Positions 32,433-47,410 of a stretch of DNA of 54,650 nucleotides are shown one piece after another. Every line of letters starts with the position of its first letter. The first letter of the stretch is position 1. The translations under genes were made by a program, and so were the position numbers. The stretch lies in assembly GCA_020845955.1 (NCBI GenBank), contig JADLEU010000093.1, positions 1 through 54,650 on the forward strand, read 5' to 3'. The DNA is from Anaerolineales bacterium (lineage in GTDB: Bacteria > Chloroflexota > Anaerolineae > Anaerolineales > UBA6663). The notes under the pieces are model-generated. The model worked only from the letters and a program-made list of their open reading frames with translations, was not told where the DNA came from and made no database searches.

Positions 32433-34049
32433 TCATGGCGGCGTTCCCGCCCGGAAATATGTGCCCCGGCCGGTGCCCCACAACACGCGCGCGGCGGCGG
32501 TGCCGGGCAGGTCGTAGGCCACCAGCCCAGAATGCGCCGTGTTGAGCACAACCTCCAGGTCCGCGTCGCCGTCGATGTTAGCCAGAGTCGGCGCCGCCAG
32601 CGAGCCGTTCCACGTCGCCCCGGCCGAGGCGGCGGGCAAGTCAACCTGGTGCAGCAGCCCCCCCAGCGCGCTGACAACGTACAACCGCCCCGGCGCGCCG
32701 GTGCCCTTTTGTGACCACGAGCTGAAGATTACCTCGGCGCGGCCGTCGCCGTCCAGGTCCGCTATCACCGGCTCGGAAGCGAAGCGGTACCCGCCACCTG
32801 GCTCGTAGACCTCGAACGGCCAATTGCCGTGCTCGGTGCGATCCAGCCAATAGGCGTGCAGCCGGCCATCGTACGAAGGGTACAAAATCTCTAGCTCGCC
32901 ATCGCCGTCGAGGTCAGCCGCGGCCGGGTTCGGCTGGGCGTTCTCGATCACGCCGTAGTCCTCGGTCAGTGGCGCGGCGCTGCCGTCGGGAACCGGGATG
33001 ATGGTCCAATCATAGCCGCCGGCCGCCCAGCGCGTCCGATCTAGGTTGAAGACGAACAAGCCTTCGTACAAGCCCGGGGGATGGCCGACCACGCAGTTGT
33101 AGACGTTCCCGGTGACAATGATCTCGCGCGCGCCATTGCCGTCGAGGTCGGTCAGGGTGGGGGCGGCGGCGGCGAAGTTCGGGCGGTGCTCGCTGCCGCA
33201 GTAAGCCCAGCCGCGCAGATCGACCACATGATCCACGTGCACGCCGACTCGGCTCCAGACTTTCAGGCTGCCGTCCGGGTTAAGCCCATAGATGGCGTTG
33301 GCGCGCAGCTGCGCGCCGTCGTCTTCGTAGGCGGTGATGTAATGCACGTCCGAGGGCCCGACGATCTCGCCCCGGCCGTCGCCGTCCAGGTCGGCAATCC
33401 CGACGTTGGCGTTGTAGGCCCCGGCCGCGTAGCCGTTTACGAGGTCGTCTGGCCCGTGCTGCGGCCACTCGCCGGCCCGCAGCGAGCCATCGTGCTCGTA
33501 GACGAACCACTGGTCAGAGTCGCGCGTCGAGGCCACGGCAATCTCCACGTCGCCGTCACCCTCCAGGTCAGCCGCGGCCAGAGTGCGCAGCTCGCTGCCC
33601 GGGGTTGGCTGGCGCGTAAGCGTAATTTGTCCGGTCGCATCGTAGACGTGAACGTAGCCGCCCCCGTGCGCCGTGATGATCTCAGGCGCGTTGTCGTCGT
33701 TCAGATCGGCGATCACCACGCCCGGCCAGGATCGGTCGCCCGGCGGGTCCACGCGCCACTCCTGGGCGCCCGTTTCGCCCGTCAGGGCCGTCACCGAATA
33801 GGCCGCGCCGACAACTTCGGCCGCGCCATCGCCGTCGATGTCGGCCACGGCCGGCGACGAATACCACCCCGTCTCGCAGTAGATCCCCTGGCAGCCGCCG
33901 TAGGCCCATTTCAGCACGGGCGCTCGCGGTCCCAAGGCGATGACGGGCAGATAGAGCGTCGTCTGGCCGCCCGGCGCCTGCGGGGCGGCCGTGGCGCGCG
34001 GGGCCGCCGCCATCAGCAGGCCGAGCAAAAGGCACGTGAACCGCGCCAT
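32433..34049 (-). CDS. Secreted FG-GAP/VCBS repeat protein (integrin alpha-like propeller)
   Basis: 538 residues from ATG 34049 (34088 is an alternative start). A signal peptide (MARFTCLLLGLLMAAAPRATA) is followed by eight calcium-loop motifs of the type D-x-[DN]-x-[DN]-G: ADIDGDG, ADLNDDN, ADLEGDG, ADLDGDG, TDLDGNG, ADLDGDG, ADLDGDG and ANIDGDA. They are spaced 50-90 residues apart as in FG-GAP beta-propellers. There is no catalytic domain, sorting signal or C-terminal anchor. A surface or secreted binding role is inferred. It is transcribed away from the HD-GYP gene. Confidence 0.85.
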   Translation of the reverse strand: MARFTCLLLGLLMAAAPRATAAPQAPGGQTTLYLPVIALGPRAPVLKWAYGGCQGIYCETGWYSSPAVADIDGDGAAEVVGAAYSVTALTGETGAQEWRVDPPGDRSWPGVVIADLNDDNAPEIITAHGGGYVHVYDATGQITLTRQPTPGSELRTLAAADLEGDGDVEIAVASTRDSDQWFVYEHDGSLRAGEWPQHGPDDLVNGYAAGAYNANVGIADLDGDGRGEIVGPSDVHYITAYEDDGAQLRANAIYGLNPDGSLKVWSRVGVHVDHVVDLRGWAYCGSEHRPNFAAAAPTLTDLDGNGAREIIVTGNVYNCVVGHPPGLYEGLFVFNLDRTRWAAGGYDWTIIPVPDGSAAPLTEDYGVIENAQPNPAAADLDGDGELEILYPSYDGRLHAYWLDRTEHGNWPFEVYEPGGGYRFASEPVIADLDGDGRAEVIFSSWSQKGTGAPGRLYVVSALGGLLHQVDLPAASAGATWNGSLAAPTLANIDGDADLEVVLNTAHSGLVAYDLPGTAAARVLWGTGRGTYFRAGTPP

Positions 34050-34149
34050 CTGGCCGCGCCCTAATTGAGAGGTTGATAGACCTTGCATATTGCGCCTGCC
34101 CGAGTATGATGGGCCGCGTGCCAATCGCCGACGGCTGCGCCCACCGACG

Positions 34150-35244
34150 ATGAACCGACCCGCTTCACTAGACGACCCCACCCGGCTCGACCTGCTGCGC
34201 CGCTACCAGATCCTCGATACTGCCCCCGAACCCGAGTTTGATGAACTGGCGTTCCTGGCGGGGCAGCTCTGCCAGGCGCCCATGGCGCTGCTGGGTTTTT
34301 TCGACGCAGAGCGCTTCTGGATCAAGGCGCAATGCGGCCTGAGCCTGGCGGCTATTCCGCGGGAGTATGCCTGGTTGGCGCTATCTGGGCAAGTGCCCGA
34401 AATCCTGGTGGTGCCTGACGCGCTGGCCGACCGGCGCTTTGCGCAGCATCCGATGGTGCGCCTGGGGCCGAAAGCGCGCTTCTATGCCAGTGTGCCGCTG
34501 ATGGCCGCCGGGCACCTGCTGGGCGCGCTGGAAGTCCTGAGTCCGGCGCCGCGTGATCTCGCGGCCGCTCAGGCAGCCGGCCTGCAGTCGCTGGCGCGCC
34601 AGGCCGTGGCTCAGCTCGAGCTGCGCCGGTTGAGGGCCGAGCACGCAGCCGCGACGCAGCGCAGCGCTCAGGTCACGCGCGACCTGAGCGTGGCCTACGA
34701 TGCCACCCTCGAACGGCTGGCGCGTGTCATCGACTTACGCGAGCGCGAAGCCGAAGGGCACCTGCAGCGCGTCGCCGGCATCACCGTGTTGTTGGCGCGC
34801 GCCCTGGGCGTGTCCGAGGCCGAACTGCCGCACATTCGCCGCGGCGCGCTGCTGCACGACATCGGCAAGCTCGCCATCCCCGACAGCGTGCTGCTGAAGC
34901 CCGAAGCTCTGACGGAAGACGAGTGGCGTGTCATGCACCAGCACCCGGCCTATGCGTACGACATGCTGGCGCCGATCGCGCTGCTCAAGACCGCGCTGGA
35001 CATCCCCTACTGCCATCACGAACGCTGGGATGGTGCGGGCTATCCCCGTGGTTTACGCGGCGCCGACATCCCCCTGGCGGCGCGCATCTTCTCGGTCGTG
35101 GATGTGTGGGACGCGCTGCGCTCTGACCGGCCCTACCGTGCCGGCTGGCCGGACGACCGGGTGCGCGACTACATCGGCAAACGGGCCGGCGCCGACTTCG
35201 ACCCGCAGGTCGTCGAGGCGTTCCTGCGCCTGCCGCTGCCTTAG
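34150..35244 (+). CDS. GAF/HD-GYP cyclic-di-GMP phosphodiesterase
   Basis: 364 residues from ATG 34150. GAF domain (about 1-150, opening RLDLLRRYQILDTAPEPEFD), a coiled linker (about 150-185), then HD-GYP. The metal-binding His236-Asp237 lies in LLHDIGKLAIPDSVLLKP, His289-His290 in CHHERWDG, and the Gly297-Tyr-Pro299 signature is intact. It would hydrolyse c-di-GMP to pGpG or GMP under control of the GAF sensor. There is no membrane segment. Its product links functionally to the c-di-GMP riboswitch at 41709. The upstream 20 codons of the longer frame lack a ribosome site. Confidence 0.92.
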   Translation: MNRPASLDDPTRLDLLRRYQILDTAPEPEFDELAFLAGQLCQAPMALLGFFDAERFWIKAQCGLSLAAIPREYAWLALSGQVPEILVVPDALADRRFAQHPMVRLGPKARFYASVPLMAAGHLLGALEVLSPAPRDLAAAQAAGLQSLARQAVAQLELRRLRAEHAAATQRSAQVTRDLSVAYDATLERLARVIDLREREAEGHLQRVAGITVLLARALGVSEAELPHIRRGALLHDIGKLAIPDSVLLKPEALTEDEWRVMHQHPAYAYDMLAPIALLKTALDIPYCHHERWDGAGYPRGLRGADIPLAARIFSVVDVWDALRSDRPYRAGWPDDRVRDYIGKRAGADFDPQVVEAFLRLPLP

Positions 35245-41659: not shown

Positions 41660-41687
41660 TTGACTTTGCGGGAATACGTGTTAGAAT
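41660..41687 (+). promoter_or_regulatory. Strong promoter for the riboswitch/subtilase transcript
   Basis: TTGACT (41660-41665), 16-base spacer, TAGAAT (41682-41687) with an upstream TGT (extended -10). Transcription should start near 41694, just before the riboswitch. Confidence 0.7.
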
Positions 41688-41708
41688 AGGGTTTGAGACG
41701 CTAACCGA

Positions 41709-41793
41709 AACGGCAAACCCGGCGAAAGCTGGGGGCGCAAAGCTATGGGTCTACCGCCATGTCCCGCATGGCCACGACTGCCAGGCCGCCGAA
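41709..41793 (+). ncRNA. Cyclic-di-GMP-I (GEMM) riboswitch aptamer
   Basis: The conserved core is visible in order. CGGCAAACC (41711-41719) is followed by a stem capped by a GAAA tetraloop (41724-41727), then GGGGCGCAAAGC (41732-41743) and GGGTCTAC. A second stem GCCATG/CATGGC spans 41756-41772, and CTGCCAGGCCGCCG closes it, with GCCG (41788-41791) pairing back to CGGC (41711-41714). This matches the Vc2-type c-di-GMP-I class. It sits between a strong promoter and the subtilase gene. Confidence 0.88.
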
Positions 41794-41818
41794 GTCTAAC
41801 GTTCAGCACCCTTTGGGC

Positions 41819-41848
41819 AGGCCTGGTATTTCCAGGCTTGCTGTGTTT
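41819..41848 (+). terminator. Candidate expression-platform hairpin after the riboswitch
   Basis: AGGCCTGG (41819-41826), loop TATTT, CCAGGCTT (41832-41839), then a weakly T-rich stretch (GCTGTGTTT). It lies between the aptamer and the subtilase ATG and could act as a regulated terminator. Confidence 0.4.
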
Positions 41849-41909
41849 AAGGGCAGAACGGCCCCTCGGGCAGCCCGGCGCAGCGGCAGAAAACACGAGG
41901 AGATCCGCT

Positions 41910-43835
41910 ATGTCCAGGCGAACGGCAGCAGCCACACTCCACACAGCACTCTCGCTCGCGGCCATCCTGGCGCTTCTAGCGCCACTGCTGCTCGGTCCGG
42001 CCACGGCGCTGGCCCAGGCCTCGACGCGCTCGCTTTATATCGTCCAGGCCGAGAGCGCAGCTGGCGCTGCCCGCCTGGTCACTGCGCTGGGCGGCCGTGT
42101 CACTTCGCAGTTGGAGATTATTCGAGGCGTAGGCGCCTGGCTGACCCCAGCCATGGCGGCCGGTCTGCGGCAGGATCCCGAAGTCACCGCCGTGACGCCA
42201 AATGGCGTGCTGAAGATCGATGGCGTGGTCGAGGCCGCGGGTCCGAGCGCTGCAAGGGGCAACTGGCCAGCCACGGACTTTGCGGACGTAACCGGCGCCG
42301 ACGCGGTGTGGAACCACGCCGTCACGGGCAGCGGCCTCACCGTGGCCGTCGTCGACAGCGGCCTGGACGCCCAGCCAGGTGTTATCAGGGGCGCCGGGGC
42401 CGGCCGCCGGCTGGTCGGGTGGGTAGACTTCGTGGACGGGTACCGCAAGCCGCGAGACCCCCATGGCCATGGCACCTTCGTGGCCGGCGTCATCGCCAAC
42501 AGCCAGGTGGGCGCCGACGGTGAGTGGAACGGCATGGCGCCGGACGTGCAACTGGCCGCGGTGCGCGTGGTAGACGAGACCGGTTCGGCGACCTACGAGC
42601 ACGTCGTCCAGGGCATTCAGTGGGTGCTGGACCACAAAGACGCGCTGAATATCCGCGTTATGAACTTGTCGCTTTCGGCGCCGGTCCGCTCACCCTACTG
42701 GGCGGACCCCGTCAACCAGGCCGTCATGGCCGCCTGGGCGAGCGGCATCGTCGTAGTGACCTCGGCTGGCAACCAGGGGCCTGCGCCGCTGAGCGTGGGT
42801 GTGCCGGGGAACAATCCCTACGTGATCACCGTCGGCGCCTTCACCGATGCCTTTACGCCGGCCGACTGGAGTGACGACTACGTGCCGGCCTTCTCCTCGG
42901 CCGGCCCAACGCACGATGGCTTTGTCAAGCCCGATCTGGTCGCGCCGGGCGGCCATATCGTTTCGACCATCTCGCGCCCGAGCTACCTGGCCCGGGCCTA
43001 TCCGGACAACCGGGTCGGCCCGCACTACTTCAAGCTCTCAGGCACCTCGCCCGCTGCGGCGGTCGTCTCGGGCATCGCGGCCCTCATGTTGGCGCACGAT
43101 CCCGGCCTGACGCCCGACCAGGTCAAATATCGGCTGCGCGCCACCGCGATCCCGCACTTCCAGCCGGCGGGCGAGAGCGCCGGCTATCGGGCCTGGCAGC
43201 AAGGCGCGGGGCGCGTATTCGCGCCGCTGGCGGTGTACGCCGTCCTGGCGCCCGGCTCCGCCAACGGCAGCATGGATGTGCAGGCCGACCTGGCTGGCAC
43301 AGCGCACTATCTTGGCTACAGCTATCGCGATGAGGCCGGCGTCTACCGCGTTTATGGCGACGACGGCTCATGGGCGCGGGGCGCAGGTGTGTGGGACGGG
43401 GCGTATGTGCCCTACTCGGGCGGGTTTTGGGCCGATGGCGGGTTTTGGGCCGACAGCGGCTTCTGGGCGGACAGTGGCTTTTGGGCCGATGGCGGGTTCT
43501 GGGCGGACAGCGGCTTTTGGGCGGATGGCGGTTTTTGGGCCGACGGCGGTTTTTGGGCCGACAGCGGTTTCTGGGCCGACGGCGGCGGCTATGACAGCGC
43601 CGGCGGGTTCTGGGCCGATGGTGAGCAGTGGGGCGATCCGGATTTTGCGAGCGCGGGCGGTTTTTGGGCCGACGGCGGTTTTTGGGCGGACGGCGGTTTT
43701 TGGGCCGATGGCGGCTTCTGGGCGGACGGCGGCTTCTGGGCCGACAGCGCCTATAGGGCAGACGCGGGGTACTGGGCCGACGGCGGTATTTGGGCCGATG
43801 GGCGTTTTGAGGCAGGGTATCTGATACAGGAGTAA
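41910..43835 (+). CDS. Secreted S8 subtilase with C-terminal GFWAD hexapeptide repeats
   Basis: 641 residues from ATG 41910, with GAGGAG eight bases upstream. Signal peptide (about 1-36), inhibitor I9-like propeptide (about 38-105), then a subtilisin domain with catalytic Asp149 (VVDSGLD), His187 (HGHGTFVAG), oxyanion Asn288 (SAGNQG) and Ser380 (SGTSPAAA). After a short beta-rich linker, residues 505-632 consist almost entirely of hexapeptides GFWAD[GS]. There are 15 exact GFWAD units and three degenerate ones, broken by one acidic spacer. No anchor motif follows. The gene has a c-di-GMP riboswitch in its leader, so the enzyme is probably tied to surface or biofilm state. The protease is intact; the repeat role is unknown. 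Confidence 0.93.
   Translation: MSRRTAAATLHTALSLAAILALLAPLLLGPATALAQASTRSLYIVQAESAAGAARLVTALGGRVTSQLEIIRGVGAWLTPAMAAGLRQDPEVTAVTPNGVLKIDGVVEAAGPSAARGNWPATDFADVTGADAVWNHAVTGSGLTVAVVDSGLDAQPGVIRGAGAGRRLVGWVDFVDGYRKPRDPHGHGTFVAGVIANSQVGADGEWNGMAPDVQLAAVRVVDETGSATYEHVVQGIQWVLDHKDALNIRVMNLSLSAPVRSPYWADPVNQAVMAAWASGIVVVTSAGNQGPAPLSVGVPGNNPYVITVGAFTDAFTPADWSDDYVPAFSSAGPTHDGFVKPDLVAPGGHIVSTISRPSYLARAYPDNRVGPHYFKLSGTSPAAAVVSGIAALMLAHDPGLTPDQVKYRLRATAIPHFQPAGESAGYRAWQQGAGRVFAPLAVYAVLAPGSANGSMDVQADLAGTAHYLGYSYRDEAGVYRVYGDDGSWARGAGVWDGAYVPYSGGFWADGGFWADSGFWADSGFWADGGFWADSGFWADGGFWADGGFWADSGFWADGGGYDSAGGFWADGEQWGDPDFASAGGFWADGGFWADGGFWADGGFWADGGFWADSAYRADAGYWADGGIWADGRFEAGYLIQE
43422..43802 (+). repeat. 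18-bp coding tandem repeats (GFWAD units)
   Basis: Tandem 18-base units of the form GG-TTY-TGG-GCN-GAY-RGC, in frame with the subtilase. Synonymous positions vary between units, so the array is protein-selected and not a CRISPR or satellite. Confidence 0.9.
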
Positions 43836-43861: not shown

Positions 43862-46800
43862 CTATCGCGGGCCGGCGGGCGCAAGAGCCTCGTCGGCCCG
43901 CTTTGCTTCCAGCCGCGCGCCGGCGCTGCGAAAGAGCAGACCGGCTTCGCGAAAGTGCAGCTGCGCCCGTTGGAGATCGCCCTGCCGGCGCGCCAGCAGC
44001 CCAAAGTCAAACGCCACGCGGCCTAAATAGAGCCGGTTGCCGAGACCGGTGAACTGCGCTTCGCTGTCCTGCAGACAGCGCAGCGCGCTGGTCCAATCTC
44101 CCTTGAAAGCGGCCAGGCGGCCGCGAAAGCGCAGGTACTCGCCGCGCTGAATCGCCGACAGCCGAACGGGTTGGCCGCTGTCGGGCGCGTATAGTGCCTC
44201 TACCCGCTCGGCCCACAACAGGGCCGCCGGCAAGTCATCCTGAGCCAGGGCTACCTCCGCCAGCAGCCGGTATATTTCCAGAAGTTGATCCGGCACGCCC
44301 AGGCCCTGGAACAGCTCGCTGCCCTGGAGCAGCGCCTGTGCCGCCGCTTCCCAGTCGCCGCCGGCCAGGTGGAACTCTCCAAAGTGCATCAATATGCTGC
44401 CGAGCAGCGAGGTGTATCCGATCTGGCGGGCAGTTTCAAGGGCTTGGCTGAGCGCCGCGCGCGCCTCGCCTAATTCGCCGCGCCGCACGTGCAGCAGGCC
44501 CAGGTTATTCAGGGCGATGGCAATGCCGTCTAACTGGCCCTGCCGGCGTTTGAGCGCCAGGCAGCGCGACAGGTTGTCGAGGGCGCTGTCGAACAACCCC
44601 ATCTCGATCTCGAGCACGCCCAGGTTGTTGAACGAGTCGGCCAGCGAGAGCACGTCGCCGATCGCTTCGCGGATGGCGATGCTCTTCCGCACGAAACTGG
44701 CGCACTGCGTCCAGTCGCCCAGGCTGTACGCCAGGCCGCCCAGCCGGTTGTAGATCGAGGCGATCACGTCGTAGGCATCCGTACCCTCGACGAGTTCCAG
44801 CGCGGCCTGGAGCAGTTGCTGGGCCTGCCCGAGATTGCCGCGCCGGAAGTGGATCCAGCCGATATCGTGCAGCAGGCTGGCCCTTTCCACGGGGGCATCG
44901 ATGCCGGGCGTCTCAAGGGCCAGTTGGGCGGCGGCCAGGCTGTCCAACGCTTCTTCGTGCTGGCCCTGGCGCTCAAAGGTGCGGCTGAGTTTGCGCTCCA
45001 GGGCGCTTCGCTCCCGCGCCAGGCTCTCCCGTTCGGCCGGAGCCGCCTCCGCCGGAAGGGTTGCCAGGGCCAGGCGGTAGCGCTCCCGCGCGGCCTCGTA
45101 ATCGCCGACAAAGAAGAGGGCGTCCCCGAGCCCAGCGTTGATCGCCAGCACCTGAGGCGGGGTATGCGGCACGTCGGGCAGCAGCGCCAGGGCCTGCTCA
45201 TAGTGGCTGCGGGCCTGCTCGACGGCATAGCCGCGGGCCGCCTTTTGGCCGGCCAGGATCAGATAGTGGACGGCCCGGTCTAGCCGCGGGCTCCAGGCAT
45301 AGTGCCGGGCGAGCACTTCGATGTGCTGGTCGAGCCGCCCGGCATAGACGCGCTCTATCGCCTCGCCCACAAAGCCATGCAGCTCGCTTCGGCTGCGGCG
45401 GAGAAGAGTGCTGTAAATCGCTTCAGACACCAGCGCATGCCGAAATTCGTATTCTGGGCCGGGCGAGTGCGGCAGCGGCACAATGAACTCGCGGGTGGTT
45501 AACAACTGCAGCGTCGTTTCGAGCTGCGGCTCGTCCGCCTCCAGCGGCCGGGTCCCGAGCTGGAGCCGGGCCGGGGCGATGGCCAGCACGGCCGACAACA
45601 ACTCGCGGCTGAACTGGCGCCCAATCACCGCGGCCGCCTGGAGCGCGTGCCGCTCGGCCTCGGCCAGGCGGTCGAAGCGGGCCAGGATCAGGTCCTGCAG
45701 CGTCTCCGGCACGCCCAGCGCGCTTACGTCCATGTGCGCCGCAATCTGCCAGCGGCCGGCCTCGCTGCGCAGTTGGCCGGAATCGATCAGCATGCGCAGA
45801 ATTTCTTCCAGGTAGAAGGGGATGCCCGCCGCCCGTTGCAGGATCTGGTCGCGCAGATCGGCTGGCAGGCTGTCGAGGCTCATCAACTCGAGGAGCAGCC
45901 GCTCGCTGTCGCCCGGCGACAATGCTTGCAGGCGGAGCAGCGTGCAGCGCTCGCCCAGCCGGCGCTCGGCTCGCTCGAACAGCCCGCCCAGCGCGCCCTC
46001 CACGTTGGGACGTGTGGTGCCGATGATCAACAAGGGCGCCGCCGGCAGGGCGTCGAAGAAAGAGGCCAGCAGGTCGAGCGAAACGTCGTCGGCCCAGTGC
46101 AGGTCCTCCAGCACCAGCACCATCGGCTGGCGCCGCGCCTCGGCCAGCAGCAGCTCGCGCACCGCCAGGAAGGTCTGCTCCCGCAGCCGGCCGGCCTCCA
46201 GCGCCTGCAGCCGGCTGGCGGCCTGGCGATCGGAGGCAGGTAATGCCAGGAGCTGCTCGAGGTAAGGCAGGATCTCGCCGGCCTGCGGGCCGGCTGCCCG
46301 GGCCACCCGGTCGGCCAACTGTCGCGCAACCTGGTCAGCGGGCCGATGGGGCGTTACCCCGAGCAGACTGCGCAGGGCATCGGTGAAGATCCAATAGGCG
46401 GCCGAGCGCCGGTAGGTCAGGCTGTGTCCCTCGACGTACTGGGCCGGGCTGCCTTCCAGGTGGCCGCGCAGCTCGGCGAGCAGCCGGCTCTTGCCAAGGC
46501 CCGCTTCGCCGCTGATGAGCAAGAGCCGGCCCTGCCGGCTGCCGGTCATGGCTTCCACGAACGACCTGATCTGGCCAAGCTCGGCGCCGCGCCCGATCAT
46601 GGGCGCTCGCAGGCCGGCGACGCCGCGCGCCGGCTCGGGCTCGCGCTTCAGGCCCAACACCAAGAAACCCGGCACGGGCCGGTTGATGCCCTTCAGCGCG
46701 AGCGGCGGGAGCGCCTCGAAATTGAACAGCGCCCGGGTCTGCTGGAAGACGGCCTCGCTGACCACGATTGTGCCTGGCCGGCTGGCCTCCTGGAGCCGCC

Positions 46801-47410
46801 GCGCCAGATTGACCGTGTCGCCGATGGCGGTGTAGTTCATCAGCATGTTCGAGCCGATGCTGCCGACAATCACCGGTCCGGTGTGCAGGCCAACGTGCAG
46901 GCGCAGCTTGCCCCGGGCCGGGCCTACCGCCGAGGCGCTGAAGCGGTCCACATCGGCCAGCATGTCGAACGCCGAGCGCAGGGCCAGCTCGGCGCTGTTC
47001 TCGTGGGCAATCGGCGCGCCAAAGAGCGCCATCAGGCCGTCGCCGGTGAACTTGTCGACCGCGCCTTCATATTTGTAGACGTCGCCGGCCAGGAGACCAA
47101 TCAACGTCTGCATCAGGTTGTACAGGTCCTCGGCGTCGAGTTTCTCCGAGAGGCTGGAGTAGCCGGCCAGGTCGGCGAACAAGATCGTCACGACCCGGCG
47201 CTGATCGGCGGCTTCGAGGCCGGCGCGGCGAAAGCGTTCGAGCAGGTTGGAGCCCATCATCATGCCCAACTGCTCAGCCGAAAAGGGGGCCGACGGGGAA
47301 GACGCGGCGTCGACCGACGTGCCGGCGAGCCGCGCGCCGCACTGGCCGCAGAAACGCATGCCGGCCGGCGCCTCGAACCCACAAGCGGGACAGGTGATCG
47401 CTGCGCTCAC
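43862..47410 (-). CDS. Class III adenylate cyclase / AAA-type ATPase / TPR protein
   Basis: 1182 residues. Zinc ribbon (CPAC, CGQC; 7-24), class III nucleotide cyclase (about 70-250), ATPase domain (about 270-600, Walker A GEAGLGKS 301-308, Walker B LVLEDLHWAD), and many TPR helices (about 720-1170). The cyclase keeps metal Asp80 and Asp124, Lys120 and Thr194 at the base-reading positions, and Asn201 and Arg205 for the transition state. Lys with Thr is the class IIIb pattern of ATP-specific, bicarbonate-responsive cyclases. I infer cAMP synthesis gated by the ATPase-TPR part. Convergent with the subtilase (26-base gap). Confidence 0.9.
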   Translation of the reverse strand: MSAAITCPACGFEAPAGMRFCGQCGARLAGTSVDAASSPSAPFSAEQLGMMMGSNLLERFRRAGLEAADQRRVVTILFADLAGYSSLSEKLDAEDLYNLMQTLIGLLAGDVYKYEGAVDKFTGDGLMALFGAPIAHENSAELALRSAFDMLADVDRFSASAVGPARGKLRLHVGLHTGPVIVGSIGSNMLMNYTAIGDTVNLARRLQEASRPGTIVVSEAVFQQTRALFNFEALPPLALKGINRPVPGFLVLGLKREPEPARGVAGLRAPMIGRGAELGQIRSFVEAMTGSRQGRLLLISGEAGLGKSRLLAELRGHLEGSPAQYVEGHSLTYRRSAAYWIFTDALRSLLGVTPHRPADQVARQLADRVARAAGPQAGEILPYLEQLLALPASDRQAASRLQALEAGRLREQTFLAVRELLLAEARRQPMVLVLEDLHWADDVSLDLLASFFDALPAAPLLIIGTTRPNVEGALGGLFERAERRLGERCTLLRLQALSPGDSERLLLELMSLDSLPADLRDQILQRAAGIPFYLEEILRMLIDSGQLRSEAGRWQIAAHMDVSALGVPETLQDLILARFDRLAEAERHALQAAAVIGRQFSRELLSAVLAIAPARLQLGTRPLEADEPQLETTLQLLTTREFIVPLPHSPGPEYEFRHALVSEAIYSTLLRRSRSELHGFVGEAIERVYAGRLDQHIEVLARHYAWSPRLDRAVHYLILAGQKAARGYAVEQARSHYEQALALLPDVPHTPPQVLAINAGLGDALFFVGDYEAARERYRLALATLPAEAAPAERESLARERSALERKLSRTFERQGQHEEALDSLAAAQLALETPGIDAPVERASLLHDIGWIHFRRGNLGQAQQLLQAALELVEGTDAYDVIASIYNRLGGLAYSLGDWTQCASFVRKSIAIREAIGDVLSLADSFNNLGVLEIEMGLFDSALDNLSRCLALKRRQGQLDGIAIALNNLGLLHVRRGELGEARAALSQALETARQIGYTSLLGSILMHFGEFHLAGGDWEAAAQALLQGSELFQGLGVPDQLLEIYRLLAEVALAQDDLPAALLWAERVEALYAPDSGQPVRLSAIQRGEYLRFRGRLAAFKGDWTSALRCLQDSEAQFTGLGNRLYLGRVAFDFGLLARRQGDLQRAQLHFREAGLLFRSAGARLEAKRADEALAPAGPR

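What the first reader, a model, noticed from the sequence alone, without database searches (positions are those of the whole stretch)
41660..43835. c-di-GMP-I riboswitch controls a secreted repeat-bearing subtilase
A TTGACT/TAGAAT promoter is followed by a full GEMM core (GGCAAACC, GAAA-capped stem, GGGGCGCAAAGC, closing GCCG) and a possible terminator hairpin before a secreted S8 protease. The base aligned with the ligand-reading G20 of Vc2 appears to be G, which favours c-di-GMP. This suggests a lifestyle switch that turns a surface protease on or off, perhaps to release or process adhesins. The target pairing with GFWAD repeats looks new to me.
Basis: partly seen in the sequence, partly recalled or inferred. 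Interest (0 to 1): 0.82.

Follow-up and report, generated by a model that had tools for sequence, protein, structure and literature searches.

The report
c-di-GMP riboswitch controlling a surface subtilase
A bacterium of the phylum Chloroflexota carries an RNA sensor for the "settle down" signal c-di-GMP just ahead of a secreted protein-cutting enzyme; the same sensor-enzyme pair is kept in about 20 genera and is built so that the signal should switch the enzyme off.

Summary
Confirmed and extended. The aptamer lies at 41703-41794 (+): RF03167 65.9 bits, RF01051 71 bits. The Rfam top label "GGC variant" is misleading: the GGC model has G at the position of Vc2 A47, while the window has G20/A47/C92, the canonical c-di-GMP triad. 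It is the only c-di-GMP-I aptamer in the 6.06 Mb genome, follows a TTGACT-N16-TAGAAT promoter, and precedes a secreted S8 subtilase (41910-43835) whose tail holds 15 GFWAD repeats.

New here: the pairing is not a one-off. In 400 genomes of the same order, 30 of 33 close orthologues (20 genera, 6 families) have a c-di-GMP-I aptamer directly upstream. Their tails are Trp-containing tandem repeats of varying sequence (GFWADG, GYGAWSG, GHGSWAG). A terminator hairpin follows each aptamer, its 5' arm complementary to the aptamer's 3' strand (33/37 leaders form this antiterminator in silico; shuffled 36%). Best reading: c-di-GMP stabilises the aptamer, frees the terminator and turns the protease OFF. 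This is wired like C. difficile PPEP-1, but with an unrelated protease. Substrate and phenotype are inference. The window's own U-tract is weak.

The parts
41660..41687 (+). sigma-70-like promoter, TTGACT N16 TAGAAT with TG one base before the -10
   Evidence: similar hexamers a few bases before the aptamer recur in many heptad-type orthologues
41703..41794 (+). c-di-GMP-I riboswitch aptamer (G20=41712, A47=41739, C92=41789)
41780..41790 (+). aptamer 3' strand GCCAGGCCGCC, predicted to pair alternatively with the terminator 5' arm (antiterminator)
41817..41841 (+). terminator-like hairpin GCAGGCCTGG-TATTT-CCAGGCTTGC, tail TGTGTTTAA 41842-41850
   Evidence: equivalent hairpins, mostly with better U-tracts, in orthologues
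41894..41903 (+). Shine-Dalgarno-like sequence (ACGAGGAGAT) before ATG 41910
41910..43835 (+). secreted S8 subtilase, 641 aa: signal peptide, propeptide (~41-103), catalytic domain (~130-443; D149 H187 N288 S380), C-terminal repeat tail
43395..43832 (+). C-terminal tail with 15 GFWAD repeats, low-confidence (probably disordered) in the model; found nowhere else in the genome
43862..47410 (-). convergent class III nucleotide-cyclase / AAA / TPR protein, kept as downstream neighbour in 17 aptamer-bearing relatives (plus L099)

Best explanation
A canonical c-di-GMP class I riboswitch controls a secreted subtilase by transcription termination. Without c-di-GMP, the aptamer's 3' strand (41780-41790) pairs with the 5' arm of the downstream hairpin (about 41817-41827), so the terminator cannot form and the protease is made. 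With c-di-GMP, the three-way junction locks that strand into the aptamer, the terminator forms and the gene is OFF. The protease therefore appears when c-di-GMP falls (leaving the sessile state) and acts outside the cell, most likely trimming or releasing surface or matrix proteins, possibly held near the surface by its Trp-repeat tail. Shown: aptamer class and ligand-contact bases, promoter, hairpin, protease family and triad, conservation of the arrangement. Inferred: direction of regulation (strong), cell-surface substrate (weak), role of the tail (unknown).
For: Rfam hits. 30 of 33 close orthologues in the order (20 genera, 6 families) carry the aptamer directly upstream; 30 of 31 rows of one protein clade have it, and the label needs 7 changes on the tree against 24.7 when shuffled. 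A hairpin with a U-rich tail lies between aptamer and ORF in all 37 leaders examined. The duplex of aptamer 3' strand and terminator 5' arm averages -16.8 kcal/mol against -10.1 for shuffled arms; native pairing beats permuted pairing (p 0.0003), and the pentad group's different aptamer strand (GGGCUGCC type) is matched by a different terminator arm (GGCAGUCC type): -19.7 native against -13.7 with heptad arms. With the 3' arm not yet made, 33 of 37 leaders fold into the antiterminator, against 36% with shuffled arms; the window does so in stepwise folding. Sister species L098/L095 show CCAGGC/GCCTGG against CCAAGC/ACTTGG. The genome has 11 GGDEF matches and 6 HD-GYP matches, one in this window. 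Other c-di-GMP-I targets sampled in the order are largely surface genes: sortase-like, TadE, beta-helix, further S8 proteases.
Against: The window's own U-tract (TGTGTTTAA) is weak, so termination may be leaky. Swapping arms within the heptad group changes little (native -16.7, swapped -16.3), because both strands are conserved there; related sequences inflate all these counts. Two distant members (L040, L041) show no antiterminator. No binding, transcript or protease data. EAL phosphodiesterases are absent, though HD-GYP proteins are present.
Confidence: 0.72

Rival explanations
1. Same aptamer but an ON switch (c-di-GMP turns the protease on), for example through translation or an unseen alternative structure, so the protease acts in biofilm building or nutrient digestion.
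For: Class I switches of both directions exist (general knowledge); the window's terminator U-tract is weak and about 60 nt of leader lie between hairpin and start codon.
Against: Terminator plus antiterminator made from the aptamer 3' strand recurs in 33 of 37 leaders; that order of strands gives OFF.
Confidence: 0.15
2. The RNA is a c-di-GMP-I-GGC variant with altered ligand preference, as the Rfam top hit suggests.
For: RF03167 wins the clan by E-value in cmscan and in several orthologues.
Against: The window scores higher with RF01051 (71 against 65.9 bits). The RF03167 consensus has G at the position of A47; the window and all 37 leaders have A. G20, A47 and C92 are the Vc2 ligand contacts (PMC4744006).
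Confidence: 0.06
3. A degraded or non-functional riboswitch relic that survives by linkage to a useful protease gene.
For: Single copy in the genome; weak U-tract; relatives G001, G004, G005 of the same family have no aptamer; one orthologue has lost it (L099) and its sister has a weak one (L088, 58.6 bits).
Against: All core and ligand-contact bases, the promoter and the competing strands are intact.
Confidence: 0.07

Closest known systems
C. difficile class I c-di-GMP riboswitch upstream of PPEP-1/Zmp1 (CD2830)
   Same: c-di-GMP-I aptamer ahead of a secreted protease expressed at low c-di-GMP, which releases surface adhesins (PMC6447587, PMC11477304)
   Different: PPEP-1 is a Pro-Pro metalloprotease of a Firmicute; here an S8 subtilase with Trp-repeat tail in Chloroflexota, substrate unknown, no inversely regulated adhesin identified
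c-di-GMP-I riboswitch (GEMM-I, RF01051; Vc2)
   Same: Full aptamer, ligand-contact bases G20/A47/C92
   Different: Target gene family; expression platform tested only in silico
c-di-GMP-I-GGC (RF03167)
   Same: Scores above its gathering cut-off
   Different: Lacks the G at position 47 that the model has; RF01051 scores higher in bits
LapD/LapG c-di-GMP-controlled adhesin proteolysis (from general knowledge)
   Same: Low c-di-GMP leads to proteolytic remodelling of the cell surface
   Different: LapG is a periplasmic cysteine protease controlled at protein level, not by a riboswitch
Subtilases solved in the PDB (3afg, 9ues)
   Same: Catalytic domain, E about 1e-48
   Different: The match covers the catalytic part only; the Trp-repeat tail has no significant counterpart there

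Membership tests
c-di-GMP-I riboswitch (RF01051) | covariance-model score above gathering cut-off (35 bits) | tested here: met
   71 bits
c-di-GMP-I riboswitch (RF01051) | ligand-contact bases G20, A47, C92 of Vc2 | tested here: met
   G 41712, A 41739, C 41789; contacts named in PMC4744006; the mapping of Vc2 numbers onto the motif rests on my own knowledge of the Vc2 sequence
c-di-GMP-I riboswitch (RF01051) | c-di-GMP-dependent structural change | not testable with these tools
   needs in-line probing
c-di-GMP-I-GGC (RF03167) | G at the position of Vc2 A47 (as in the model consensus) | tested here: not met
   A in the window and in 37 of 37 leaders
cGAMP-type GEMM-Ib | A at position 20 | tested here: not met
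   G in the window; A only in relatives L083 and L097
terminator-type riboswitch, OFF | intrinsic terminator before the ORF | tested here: inconclusive
   hairpin -18.3 kcal/mol but poor U-tract in the window; better in most relatives
terminator-type riboswitch, OFF | antiterminator between aptamer 3' strand and terminator 5' arm | tested here: met
   (in silico only)
Peptidase S8 subtilase | domain and Asp-His-Ser triad with oxyanion Asn | tested here: met
   PF00082 1.3e-48; D149, H187, N288, S380 invariant in 28 sequences
PPEP-1-like adhesin-release module | protease cleaves a c-di-GMP-induced surface adhesin | not testable with these tools
   no substrate known

The most novel reading that the evidence does not exclude
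Chloroflexota have placed Trp-repeat subtilases under c-di-GMP-I OFF-riboswitches several times independently, forming a widespread c-di-GMP-to-surface-proteolysis switch that parallels PPEP-1 in Clostridioides, with the fast-evolving Trp-repeat tail acting as an adhesive or matrix anchor.
Probability: 0.35. Interest if true: 0.65.

Novelty: new variant of a known kind. Interest (0 to 1): 0.52.

Why it matters
It gives a conserved, directly testable c-di-GMP output in a phylum for which I found almost no c-di-GMP riboswitch literature, and suggests that placing a secreted protease under a c-di-GMP OFF riboswitch arose more than once with unrelated proteases. It also shows that an Rfam 'GGC variant' label in this group should not be read as an altered binding pocket.

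Tried and rejected
GGC-variant reading: rejected on base 47 and bit score. Other copies of the aptamer or of the GFWAD repeats in the genome: none. AlphaFold2 of the protease: catalytic part and propeptide confident, repeat tail 496-641 below pLDDT 50, so it says nothing firm about the tail; no fold search was made for that reason. Aestuariimicrobium hit L042: only a repeat-like match, no subtilase among its longer ORFs, set aside. EAL domains absent; HD-GYP present. Literature on the pairing or the repeats: nothing in the library; the 2017 variant-riboswitch paper is not held. L140 has an aptamer roughly 350 nt ahead of a longer open frame and was not counted as a clear case.

Full report
Observation. 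The window holds one Rfam match, a c-di-GMP-I-clan aptamer at 41703-41794 on the + strand. Searched alone in the whole genome (6.06 Mb, 431 contigs), RF03167 gives 65.9 bits and RF01051 71 bits at the same place, and neither finds a second copy. The downstream protein is a Peptidase_S8 with an SD-preceded ATG at 41910; a long N-terminal helix fits a signal peptide, an alpha/beta propeptide follows, and the catalytic Asp149, His187, Asn288 and Ser380 are invariant in 28 relatives. The tail has 15 GFWAD units and is modelled with low confidence; no other gene of the genome has these repeats.

Ligand. Vc2 contacts c-di-GMP with G20, A47 and C92 (PMC4744006). By alignment these fall on G41712, A41739 and C41789. 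The GGC family's consensus has G in place of A47, so the window is canonical at the base that separates the two models, although E-values favour RF03167. Across 37 leaders A47 is invariant; G20 is G in 35 and A in two relatives, L083 and L097, which may sense cGAMP or be dual.

Relatives. I searched 400 genomes of the same order with the first 460 residues and fetched the loci. Of the 33 closest orthologues, 30 have a c-di-GMP-I aptamer directly ahead of the gene; the exceptions are L099, L101 and L102 (also negative on re-scan). The 30 cover 20 genera and 6 families. In a tree of 74 catalytic domains, 30 of 31 rows of the window's clade have the aptamer (support of that node only 85). More distant subtilases with five-residue Trp repeats also have it: L107, L110, L111, L112 (the last three with tandem aptamers), L034, and the MAGs L040 and L041; L116 and L119 from other families too. 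Many phylum relatives with similar Trp-repeat tails lack it. The label needs 7 changes on the tree, at least 4 forced by well-supported branches, so gains or losses were repeated. A class III cyclase/AAA/TPR gene lies convergently downstream in the window, in 17 aptamer-bearing relatives and in L099.

Expression platform. Every leader has a hairpin between aptamer and ORF, mostly with a good U-tract. Its 5' arm is complementary to the aptamer's 3' strand: mean duplex energy -16.8 kcal/mol against -10.1 for shuffled arms. Folding each leader up to the hairpin loop, 33 of 37 form six or more antiterminator pairs against 36% with shuffled arms. In the window, stepwise folding shows the aptamer helix at 41794, the antiterminator at 41830 and the terminator hairpin by 41846. 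Between groups the strands change together, and L095 against its sister L098 shows matched changes in both strands. This order of strands predicts OFF. Limits: relatives are not independent, within the heptad group the swap test is uninformative, and the window's own U-tract is poor.

Setting. The genome has GGDEF proteins and HD-GYP proteins, one of them at 34090-35244 in this window with HDIGK and HHE-GYP motifs; EAL is absent. Other c-di-GMP-I targets sampled in the order include sortase-like proteins (weak matches), TadE pilus proteins, a beta-helix protein, a glycosyltransferase and further S8 proteases, which fits a surface-lifestyle regulon.

Comparison. The nearest functional parallel is C. 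difficile PPEP-1, a secreted protease under a class I c-di-GMP riboswitch, made at low c-di-GMP and releasing adhesins. The wiring is the same in kind; the protease family, the phylum and the repeat tail differ, and no substrate is known. I therefore call the arrangement a new variant of a known kind, while the RNA itself is an ordinary member of RF01051.

Noticed in passing
window 34090-35244 (+): GAF-like plus HD-GYP protein with HDIGK and HHE..GYP motifs, a likely c-di-GMP phosphodiesterase, 6.5 kb upstream of the riboswitch
   Followed up: partly
window 43862-47410 (-): class III nucleotide cyclase/AAA/TPR protein convergent with the subtilase and conserved as its neighbour in 17 aptamer-bearing relatives plus L099; a functional link is possible
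   Followed up: partly
L083 882-970, L097 842-933: orthologue leaders with A at position 20, the base linked with cGAMP sensing
   Followed up: no
L110 638-875, L111 3110-3347, L112 3836-4023: tandem c-di-GMP-I aptamers ahead of pentad-repeat subtilases
   Followed up: no
L126-L129, L132-L135, L138, L142: subtilases of the same phylum with Trp tandem-repeat tails (SYSTWAG, SVSWDT) but no c-di-GMP-I aptamer
   Followed up: partly
L073 3095-3248, L074 3199-3352: cobalamin riboswitch downstream of the subtilase in two related genomes
   Followed up: no
window 32433-34181 (-): secreted protein with FG-GAP-like repeats near the HD-GYP gene
   Followed up: no
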